From Acetobacter fabarum (GTDB lineage: Bacteria > Pseudomonadota > Alphaproteobacteria > Acetobacterales > Acetobacteraceae): a stretch of DNA of 64,000 nt. The DNA is taken from the NCBI RefSeq assembly GCF_011516925.1, contig NZ_WOTG01000011.1, forward strand, positions 1-64,000. Direction: 5' to 3'. Positions 41,014-42,576 of the stretch are shown here, in pieces; the first letter of the stretch is position 1; every line of letters begins with the position of its first letter. The translations under genes and the position numbers were made by a program. A model generated the notes under the pieces. The model made no database searches and had not been told where the DNA came from. It saw only the letters and a program-made list of their open reading frames with translations.

Positions 41014-41280
41014 TCAGGCAATCCAGCTTGTGTGGCATAGGCGACGCCCTGCCCAGAGGCACAAGACCAGATTTCGGGAATAAGTACTTTATTGGTCCTC
41101 ATTCCAGGACTGTGGCAACAGATCTGCCATTGGGCAAGCCCCCAACGCGTTCTTGAACACAACGGTTCACCTGTAAAATCCAGCCGGGCTGTGCTCCCAA
41201 GGTTTATGCTGTGTATACTAACGCGCTACAGGTCACGCCCGACCGCAAGCGAACTGCTTTATTCTGTCAGAAGATACGCC

Positions 41281-41778
41281 ATGACCGTACAGCCTGTTGT
41301 CCTTTTCCCCGATCAGCGTTTGCGTGAGGTTGCCGTGCCAGTCACCGCGTTTGACAGCACATTGCGCCCCCTTGCAACGGACCTGCTGGACACACTCCGC
41401 GCTGTTCAGGGGCTAGGCATAACCGGCCCACATATTGGCGTTGGCCAGCGCGTGGTTGTTCTTGATCTGCCAGATTGCGATGAACCGGAAACCTACATTA
41501 ATCCAGAAATTATCTGGCTGTCCGAAGATACCGTCATGAATGAAGAGGGCAGCATTTCCATGCCAGGCATATCCGCCACAGTTATGCGCCCCGCAAAGCT
41601 GAAGGTCCGGTATGCAGACCTGAATGGCCATATGCAGGAGAGGGAGGCAGATGGCCTTCGTAGTGTCTGCTTACAGCACGAGATTGACCAACTGGATGGC
41701 GTGTTCTGGCTGCAAAAGCTCTCCAGCCTCCGGCGTAACCGCCTTATGGCACGGTACAGAAAACTCCAGCAGCCATGA
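41281..41778 (+). CDS. Peptide-deformylase-like protein with degenerate active site
   Basis: The 165-residue product aligns by eye to peptide deformylase over its whole length, but all three signature motifs are altered. Motif I GLAAPQ reads G46-ITGPH51. Motif II EGCLS reads EEGSISMPG, with Ser91 in place of the metal-ligand Cys. Motif III HExxH reads H133-EIDQ137, with the second metal His replaced by Gln. Two of three metal ligands are gone, so ordinary deformylase activity is unlikely. The start ATG at 41281 follows the usual N-terminus. It is the last host gene before the prophage. Confidence 0.85.
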   Translation: MTVQPVVLFPDQRLREVAVPVTAFDSTLRPLATDLLDTLRAVQGLGITGPHIGVGQRVVVLDLPDCDEPETYINPEIIWLSEDTVMNEEGSISMPGISATVMRPAKLKVRYADLNGHMQEREADGLRSVCLQHEIDQLDGVFWLQKLSSLRRNRLMARYRKLQQP

Positions 41779-42046: not shown

Positions 42047-42286
42047 TCATCGAATCGCTGAGGTTAATGAAGCTGTAGCCTGGGGCATCTCAAGACTTGA
42101 TATCCAGCTTTTTACATCCTGCTCCCTCCAACGAACGCAATTTTCGCTGAACTTTACCGGTCTGGGGAAATTGCCACTATCCATCCGTCTGTAGAGGGTA
42201 CGAGTCGTAACCTTTAGGCACTTTGCGACCTCCTTAGCGGTAAGAAATTGTTCCAATGGCTCGGCCTGAGAGAGTTGTGAGCTCAT
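42047..42286 (-). CDS. AlpA-like excisionase / DNA-binding protein
   Basis: The 79-residue winged-helix protein contains EQFLTAKEVAKCLKVTTRTLYRRMDSGNFPRPVKFSENCVRWREQDVKSWI, the AlpA/MerR-like motif of prophage excisionases and regulators. It is the leftmost phage gene; its first bases overlap the upstream XRE gene (ATGA). An integrase, its usual neighbour, is missing here. Confidence 0.85.
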   Translation of the reverse strand: MSSQLSQAEPLEQFLTAKEVAKCLKVTTRTLYRRMDSGNFPRPVKFSENCVRWREQDVKSWISSLEMPQATASLTSAIR

Positions 42287-42576
42287 GCGTCTGAACTTTC
42301 AAAAAACCATGTGACTGGCACGGCCAGCGTTTCTGCCAGCACAGGCACCAGTGCGGCTTTGATTGCGTTGCGGCCCAGCTCGTATTTTTGAACCTGCTGG
42401 TAAGAGCAGCCCACGGCCTCGGCCACGCGGTCCATGCTCATGCTGAGTTGGGTGCGGCGGTGGCGGATGCGTTTACCCAAAGCCTTATCCCACCTGATGC
42501 GCTGTGGCTCCTGCCGGGGGATGACTACTTGCTTGGTGCCAAGCAGCTCCTCCAGGTCAATCTGGTTGGCGGTCAT
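42283..42576 (-). CDS. XRE-family helix-turn-helix regulator
   Basis: The 97-residue product has the HTH GKRIRHRRTQLSMSMDRVAEAVGCSYQQVQKYELGRNAIKAALVPVLAETLAVPVTWFF. It probably controls the leftward early operon or the excision genes. It overlaps the genes on both sides by 1-4 bases, so the leftward set 43389-42047 behaves as one operon. Confidence 0.85.
   Translation of the reverse strand: MTANQIDLEELLGTKQVVIPRQEPQRIRWDKALGKRIRHRRTQLSMSMDRVAEAVGCSYQQVQKYELGRNAIKAALVPVLAETLAVPVTWFFESSDA

What the first reader, a model, noticed from the sequence alone, without database searches (positions are those of the whole stretch)
41281..41778. Peptide-deformylase-like protein lacking two of three metal ligands
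All three deformylase motifs are changed: GPH for APQ, EGSIS for EGCLS and HEIDQ for HExxH. The Cys and one His metal ligands are gone while the rest of the sequence stays intact without stops. That suggests selection for a non-catalytic role or a new chemistry, for example ribosome or N-terminus binding.
Basis: partly seen in the sequence, partly recalled or inferred. Interest (0 to 1): 0.55.

Follow-up and report, generated by a model that had tools for sequence, protein, structure and literature searches.

The report
Deformylase paralogue with rebuilt active site
An acetic acid bacterium carries, beside two normal copies, a third relative of the essential enzyme that trims new proteins; its metal-binding site was swapped for a different set of residues that its relatives share, so it probably does a different, still unknown job.

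Summary
The ORF at 41281-41778 is a full-length peptide deformylase (PDF) fold. It has His for the motif I Gln, Ser for the metal-binding Cys and Gln for the second metal-binding His, and keeps the first His and the catalytic Glu. Neither refuting condition is met. The genome has two other PDFs with normal motifs, one directly before fmt. All 133 variant loci collected (124 distinct sequences; 52 loci found without using these motifs) share the same H/S/H/E/Q plus Phe-Trp, and no intermediates turned up. They form one clade on the side of the fmt-adjacent Def, are under purifying selection like normal PDFs, and were found only in the window's class, Alphaproteobacteria (0 of 149 genomes sampled from other classes of the phylum). 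Nine further positions differ consistently, six of them in or next to the motifs. The AlphaFold model (pLDDT 96) matches E. coli PDF along the chain. So this is an old, neofunctionalised paralogue, not a decaying gene. NCBIfam NF009484 groups it but names it 'peptide deformylase'; I found no paper describing it. I favour rebuilt chemistry, with His51 replacing the lost His as ligand or base, over a pure binding role, but sequence alone cannot decide this.

The parts
41281..41778 (+). PDF-like paralogue gene, 165 aa plus stop
   Evidence: NF009484 236.4 bits; PF01327 138.8 bits
41410..41436 (+). Motif I, G-L-G-I-T-G-P-H-I (own canonical copy: G-I-G-L-A-A-P-Q-V); His51 at 41431-41433
   Evidence: His in 133 of 133 variant rows, Gln in 65 of 65 canonical rows
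41545..41559 (+). Motif II, E-G-S-I-S (canonical E-G-C-L-S); Ser91 at 41551-41553
   Evidence: Ser in 133 of 133, always an AGY codon (AGC 119, AGT 14)
41677..41691 (+). Motif III, H-E-I-D-Q (canonical HExxH); His133 and Glu134 kept, Gln137 at 41689-41691
   Evidence: H-E and Q in 133 of 133
41704..41709 (+). Phe142-Trp143, variant-specific pair (canonical Leu or Met, then Phe or Tyr)
   Evidence: FW in 133 of 133
41725..41769 (+). Basic C-terminal helix, residues 149-163, in the place of the ribosome-binding helix of E. coli PDF
   Evidence: Helix in the AlphaFold model; mean net charge of the last 24 alignment columns +7.2 (variants) and +5.4 (canonical)

Best explanation
An old paralogue of alphaproteobacterial Def that has been neofunctionalised. 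Shown: it keeps the PDF fold, the first metal-site His and the catalytic Glu; it has lost the Cys ligand, the second His ligand and the oxyanion Gln, and has invariant His51, Ser91, Gln137, Phe142 and Trp143 instead; in the genomes checked it accompanies, and does not replace, normal PDFs. Inferred: it is not a normal N-formylmethionine deformylase. In canonical PDF, Gln50 points at the metal-bound water (recalled geometry; a passage of PMC13131673 says this Gln hydrogen-bonds the substrate's formyl carbonyl oxygen), so the concerted Gln to His and His to Gln exchange would move one imidazole to the other side of the same pocket. The most likely mechanism is a rebuilt centre of His51 and His133 with Gln137 and/or Ser91, with Glu134 kept as acid/base. 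It would bind a different metal (or a metal held more weakly), or none, and act on an amide or formyl substrate other than bulk nascent fMet-proteins. Fold and residue conservation are shown; metal binding, chemistry and substrate are inference.
For: Same seven residues in 133 of 133 variant loci, no intermediates among 198 in-frame PDF rows. His133 and Glu134, the residues a pure binding scaffold could lose, are never lost. Single clade, support 99/100. Nine further positions differ consistently (24, 35, 47, 48, 72, 92, 94, 145, 146). Purifying selection as in canonical PDFs: median dN/dS 0.172 (597 variant pairs at 80-97% identity) against 0.186 (17 canonical pairs). High-confidence full PDF fold, TM 0.92-0.94 to E. 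coli, P. aeruginosa and B. multivorans PDFs, best Z 26.7. A normal PDF is present besides in the window genome and in 22 of 22 others checked.
Against: No metal, activity or structure data. In Salmonella Cys90 is reported as required for activity and C90S fails to rescue (PMC7683392, passages seen), so Ser91 alone predicts loss of the normal reaction. Invariant polar residues also fit a tight ligand-binding pseudoenzyme. The gene is dispensable to lineages: 16 of 49 genomes of the genus lack it at E 1e-60, and one plasmid copy is broken. No neighbour names a substrate.
Confidence: 0.45

Rival explanations
1. Pseudo-deformylase: no catalysis. It still docks near the ribosome exit through its basic C-terminal helix and binds N-formylated or free N-termini (or PDF inhibitors), tuning access of the active PDF; the altered pocket is a binding site.
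For: Loss of two ligands and the oxyanion Gln; Cys90 is required for activity in Salmonella PDF (PMC7683392, passages); fold and basic C-terminal helix kept; accessory PDFs with altered motifs in S. aureus and S. pneumoniae are called inactive (PMC12690207, passages).
Against: The catalytic Glu134 and His133 are invariant, and a new His is invariant too, which a binder would not obviously need. Ribosome binding was not tested.
Confidence: 0.36
2. Metal-free Ser-His hydrolase: Ser91 and His133 sit where two metal ligands sat, so they can pair as nucleophile and base with Glu134 or His51 assisting; the metalloenzyme has become a serine-type enzyme.
For: Ser91, His133, Glu134 and His51 all invariant; Ser91 never Thr, Ala or Cys and always coded AGY.
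Against: No such PDF is known to me; no coordinates were measured; no activity data.
Confidence: 0.1
3. An ordinary deformylase whose motif changes are tolerated.
For: Motif rules are not absolute: 7.1% of reference genomes lack any PDF with the exact updated motifs (PMC12690207, section 6 read); NCBIfam names it peptide deformylase.
Against: Three changes at ligand and oxyanion positions; a normal PDF was present besides in all 23 genomes checked.
Confidence: 0.07
4. Recent decay of a redundant def copy.
For: It is accessory, 16 of 49 genomes of the genus gave no match at E 1e-60, and a plasmid copy in Mesorhizobium huakuii is frame-shifted.
Against: Same residues in 133 of 133 loci from many genera, median dN/dS 0.17, no internal stop in the variant matches listed.
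Confidence: 0.02

Closest known systems
Canonical bacterial peptide deformylase (Def, EC 3.5.1.88; E. coli PDF 1xen, P. aeruginosa 1n5n, B. multivorans 5j46)
   Same: Whole fold (TM 0.92-0.94, 36-37% identity), first His and Glu of HExxH, motif II frame EGxxS, C-terminal helix
   Different: Gln to His, Cys to Ser, second His to Gln, Leu-Phe to Phe-Trp, and nine further positions that differ consistently from the canonical rows compared
Type 3 PDFs (S. aureus, S. pneumoniae, trypanosome, archaeal)
   Same: Accessory or divergent PDFs with substitutions in the conserved motifs, reported weak or inactive (PMC12690207, PMC5591237, passages seen)
   Different: Type 3 is a loose, diverse set; the passages I saw do not describe this conserved H/S/HE/Q/FW set. 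No type 3 sequence was put in my tree, so kinship is untested
NCBIfam NF009484 (PRK12846.1-5, 'peptide deformylase' equivalog)
   Same: The window protein scores 236 against a cut-off of 190; 52 of 56 fetched over-cut-off matches are this variant
   Different: The model's name asserts the normal function, and its cut-off also admits 4 canonical QCHEH proteins (L165-L168, 191.1-197.5 bits)
Third tandem PDF of four same-class genomes (G320, G451, G548, G746; order not named by any search)
   Same: Another PDF with the Cys changed to Ser, beside canonical PDFs
   Different: Different substitutions: E(A/G)SPNL and HQIDH (catalytic Glu to Gln; both His and motif I Gln kept); apparently an independent change, not put in the tree

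Membership tests
Peptide deformylase, catalytic (EC 3.5.1.88) | PDF fold | tested here: met
   PF01327 138.8 bits; model pLDDT 96; TM 0.92-0.94 to solved PDFs
Peptide deformylase, catalytic (EC 3.5.1.88) | Motif I ending in Gln | tested here: not met
   His51; 133 of 133 variant rows
Peptide deformylase, catalytic (EC 3.5.1.88) | Motif II Cys metal ligand (EGCxS) | tested here: not met
   Ser91; 133 of 133
Peptide deformylase, catalytic (EC 3.5.1.88) | HExxH with both His ligands | tested here: not met
   HEIDQ; second His is Gln137 in 133 of 133
Peptide deformylase, catalytic (EC 3.5.1.88) | Catalytic Glu of motif III | tested here: met
   Glu134 in 133 of 133
Peptide deformylase, catalytic (EC 3.5.1.88) | Deformylase activity and metal content | not testable with these tools
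   Needs purified protein
Peptide deformylase, catalytic (EC 3.5.1.88) | C-terminal helix that binds the ribosome | tested here: inconclusive
   Basic helix present; binding not testable
Type 3 PDF | Substitutions in the conserved motifs | tested here: met
   All three motifs altered; canonical PDFs present besides
Type 3 PDF | Clusters with type 3 PDFs in a tree | not tested
   No type 3 reference sequence was included; within my set it lies with alphaproteobacterial Def
NCBIfam NF009484 | Score over the curated cut-off (190 bits) | tested here: met
   236.4 bits

The most novel reading that the evidence does not exclude
An essential metalloenzyme fold has been rewired into a different enzyme by a concerted swap of active-site residues: the His/Gln exchange (Gln50 to His, His136 to Gln) plus Cys90 to Ser either moves the metal site within the same pocket or replaces it by a metal-free Ser-His-Glu hydrolase, and this form has been kept beside normal deformylase across Alphaproteobacteria for a distinct formyl- or N-terminal substrate.
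Probability: 0.4. Interest if true: 0.75.

Novelty: new variant of a known kind. Interest (0 to 1): 0.52.

Why it matters
PDF is a textbook essential enzyme and antibiotic target, and databases call this protein a deformylase because of its fold. A conserved form in Acetobacter, Bradyrhizobium, Sinorhizobium, Mesorhizobium, Xanthobacter and relatives with a different active-site set means that counts of accessory PDFs may mix at least two functions, and it may show how a metal site can be moved or dropped within one fold. It also makes the question 'what else handles formylated N-termini?' testable in laboratory organisms such as S. meliloti.

Tried and rejected
Decay was rejected by conservation and dN/dS. 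A shared operon was sought in 80 named loci with home-made gene calls and Pfam on 20 upstream neighbours from 20 loci (18 of 20 had a hit): LysE, RecJ, RlmN, an FAD protein, solute-binding proteins, MFS, TldD, amidase, MarR-GNAT and others; I saw no family that recurs as immediate neighbour across genera in that set, apart from solute-binding proteins of two different families. Within 5 kb, some protein clusters do recur across genera, e.g. cluster 4 in 16 of 80 loci (the members I read are LysR-type regulators) and cluster 8 in 12 of 80; I did not count these as linkage because LysR is a very large family and their place relative to the gene varies. The gene calls were noisy (some antisense ORFs). 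NF006670 and NF011189 were tried as possible sister families in 142 and 96 same-class genomes with no match at the limits set and no control ringing: uninformative. Phages: 60 records match at E 1e-10; only one was read (L202) and it is canonical. Plasmids: 726 records match at E 1e-20, mostly Klebsiella and Escherichia; of four plasmid-collection hits opened, three carry the variant (S. meliloti L199, whose 3.7 Mb record is labelled pSymB; Mesorhizobium L200; a broken copy in L203) and one is canonical (L201). Ten paper searches listed no paper that describes this variant; the library is open-access PMC only. The solved-structure search listed 60 of 80 sequences, named deformylase apart from 3uwa and 5mtc; I read two alignments, both canonical; the best score, 175 bits, lies in the range of canonical proteins with the same profile, but the motifs of the other chains were not checked. 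A promoter/terminator scan gave 1 promoter-like site (0.9 expected) and 3 terminator-like sites (0.9 expected), none of which I could tie to the gene.

Limits of the counts: one search searched with the variant's own motifs and kept the best 80 of 578, so those 80 loci are biased towards the motif; the 52 variant loci are not. Lists were cut, and only the best matches became loci; two over-cut-off matches were not fetched (G140 contig 10, G555). The 133 loci may hold a gene twice under a named and an unnamed record; 124 aligned sequences are distinct. In one search, 165 of 188 distinct rows were kept: in L103-L142 I dropped the numbers that are not multiples of four, apart from six; rows under 140 residues were dropped too. 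The bootstrap had not settled and the root is at the midpoint. In one search the 11 QCHEHLY rows and one fragment row were left out, which makes Phe at position 143 look fixed in canonical rows; with them it is 54 Phe and 11 Tyr. Its counts of conserved columns included gap columns; one search gives 33 (variants) and 28-30 (canonical) without them. The fragment row (L139) is an out-of-frame hit; the intact copy of L139 is among the 133. One search pairs share sequences and are not independent.

Full report
What is there. The window is contig 11 of a 3.08 Mb assembly. Its nearest kin in the named collection are Acetobacter: the closest match, 90% identical over residues 1-165, is from A. lovaniensis. 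The ORF at 41281-41778 (+) encodes 165 aa and matches PF01327 (138.8 bits) and NCBIfam NF009484 (236.4 bits, cut-off 190). The first His and the Glu of HExxH are intact.

Other deformylases in the genome. Two more PF01327 proteins are found. One lies directly before fmt (TIGR00460, 267.5 bits, cut-off 201.5; Formyl_trans_N) and has GLAAPQ, EGCLS and HELDH; the other has GLAAPQ, EGCLS and HEMDH. In 22 other variant-bearing genomes, chosen by me and searched with PF01327, at least one further PDF per genome was fetched (L169-L190 hold one each), and these 22 all read Q-C-H-E-H. In the genomes checked the variant is therefore accessory.

Relatives. NF009484 was searched in 299 genomes of the family (20 genomes over the cut-off), 289 of the class (12) and 398 of the phylum (25; the three samples share genomes). 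Of 56 distinct over-cut-off matches fetched, 52 carry H-S-H-E-Q-F-W and 4 (L165-L168, 191.1-197.5 bits) are canonical. Adding 80 named loci (which used the variant's motifs as bait) gives 133 variant loci, counting the window gene twice (L003, L017), with 124 distinct aligned sequences; all are identical at the seven positions. The 65 canonical rows are all Q-C-H-E-H. No mixed state was seen among the 198 in-frame rows. Named carriers include Acetobacter, Gluconacetobacter, Novacetimonas, Nguyenibacter, Acidomonas, Ancylobacter, Bradyrhizobium, Xanthobacter, Mesorhizobium, Aminobacter, Brucella/Ochrobactrum, Pseudochrobactrum, Labrys and Elstera, and Sinorhizobium meliloti.

Distribution. With a profile of 18 variants, 200 genomes of the phylum gave a clear gap: 11 genomes score 218-269 bits, and the next matches are 196 bits or less. 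All 11 belong to the window's class (11 of 51 in-class genomes, counted from the table), and none to the 149 genomes of other classes. Within the window's genus 33 of 49 genomes have it and 16 do not at E 1e-60. It is also on a plasmid of Mesorhizobium sp. AR07, and a plasmid of M. huakuii holds a broken copy. So, as far as sampled, it is class-restricted, patchy and to some degree mobile.

Phylogeny and selection. A tree of 165 rows puts all 101 variants on one side of one branch, support 99/100. They lie in the large group (100/100) that holds the genome's fmt-adjacent Def (L001), with two canonical rows (L045, L047) as nearest neighbours (92/82); the second canonical type of the genome (L002-like, 10 rows) is on the far side. 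The bootstrap had not settled and the root is drawn at the midpoint, so the exact sister group is uncertain. Median dN/dS is 0.172 in 597 variant pairs and 0.186 in 17 canonical pairs at 80-97% identity; the window against its nearest relative gives 0.288. Both forms are under purifying selection.

Concerted change. Comparison of 133 variant with 54 canonical rows (with 65 rows) shows, besides Gln51His, Cys91Ser, His137Gln and Phe142-Trp143, consistent differences at residues 24, 35, 47, 48, 72, 92, 94, 145 and 146 (window numbering). Examples: Ala48 in 65 of 65 canonical rows, Thr in 130 of 133 variants; residue 94 Met in 131 of 133 variants and 1 of 65 canonical rows; Asp145 in 56 of 65 canonical rows, Gln in 96 of 133 variants. 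Six of the nine lie in or next to the three motifs. Residue columns over 95% conserved number 33 in variants and 28-30 in canonical rows, so the variant is no less constrained, though it is also the less diverse set (mean identity 62% against 56%).

Structure. AlphaFold2 with 51 sequences gives mean pLDDT 96.0 and pTM 0.91. Foldseek finds solved PDFs over the full length (TM 0.92-0.94 for 5j46, 1xen and 1n5n) and VIA-align gives a best Z of 26.7. The basic C-terminal helix is kept, with mean net charge +7.2 against +5.4 in canonical rows.

How it probably works. Cys90 is reported as metal-binding and required for activity in Salmonella PDF, and C90S fails to rescue growth under zinc stress (PMC7683392, passages seen); the motif I Gln is said to stabilise the formyl carbonyl (PMC13131673, passage seen). 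Losing both and one His should abolish the standard reaction. But the pocket is not simply emptied: the general base Glu and the first His never vary, and one imidazole is gained exactly where the Gln was. I therefore put rebuilt chemistry (relocated metal site, about 0.45; metal-free Ser-His, about 0.1) ahead of a purely binding pseudo-deformylase (about 0.36). Every step after the residue pattern is inference.

Neighbourhood. In the window the gene is divergent from mntH (NF001923, 632 bits), an arrangement shared by the relatives L063, L064, L065, L067 and L076 (home-made gene calls); in S. meliloti it is divergent from mgtE. Elsewhere the immediate neighbours differ. I do not read a metal link into two cases.

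Known or new. Papers on PDFs describe motif-substituted 'type 3' PDFs as weak or inactive (PMC12690207: abstract, section 6 and passages; PMC5591237: passages). The first of these reports that 80% of PDFs keep the updated motifs, so variants like this one should be in its remainder, but the passages I saw do not describe this set, and no word beginning with 'rhizob' or 'acetobacter' occurs in its main text (this would miss names such as Bradyrhizobium). None of the ten paper searches listed a description of it; the library is incomplete. NCBIfam groups it under a name that asserts normal function. I file it as a new variant of a known kind.

Noticed in passing
L209, L210, L207, L208 and overlapping loci L213-L216, L219-L222: Four same-class genomes have three PDF genes in tandem; the third copy has Cys to Ser and catalytic Glu to Gln (E(A/G)SPNL, HQIDH). 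This is a second, apparently independent degenerate PDF.
   Followed up: partly
window 41079-41156: An intergenic block between mntH (-) and the PDF-like gene (+) is strongly conserved in five Acetobacter loci; no Rfam match up to E 1, weak consensus structure. Perhaps a control element of mntH.
   Followed up: partly
NCBIfam NF009484: The curated cut-off of 190 bits admits four canonical PDFs (L165-L168, 191.1-197.5 bits) together with the variants, so the name is applied to two different active sites.
   Followed up: yes
L203 2501-2982: A Mesorhizobium huakuii plasmid carries a broken (frame-shifted) copy of the variant gene.
   Followed up: partly
window 42047-42576 (-): An AlpA/HTH_17 protein and an HTH_3 regulator begin just downstream of the gene, with further small ORFs behind them: perhaps the edge of a mobile element; no tRNA in 38000-64000.
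   Followed up: no
His51 codon, variant loci: His51 is CAT in 122 of 133 rows although CAC is commoner at His133 (88 CAC, 45 CAT). Unexplained; partly shared ancestry.
   Followed up: no
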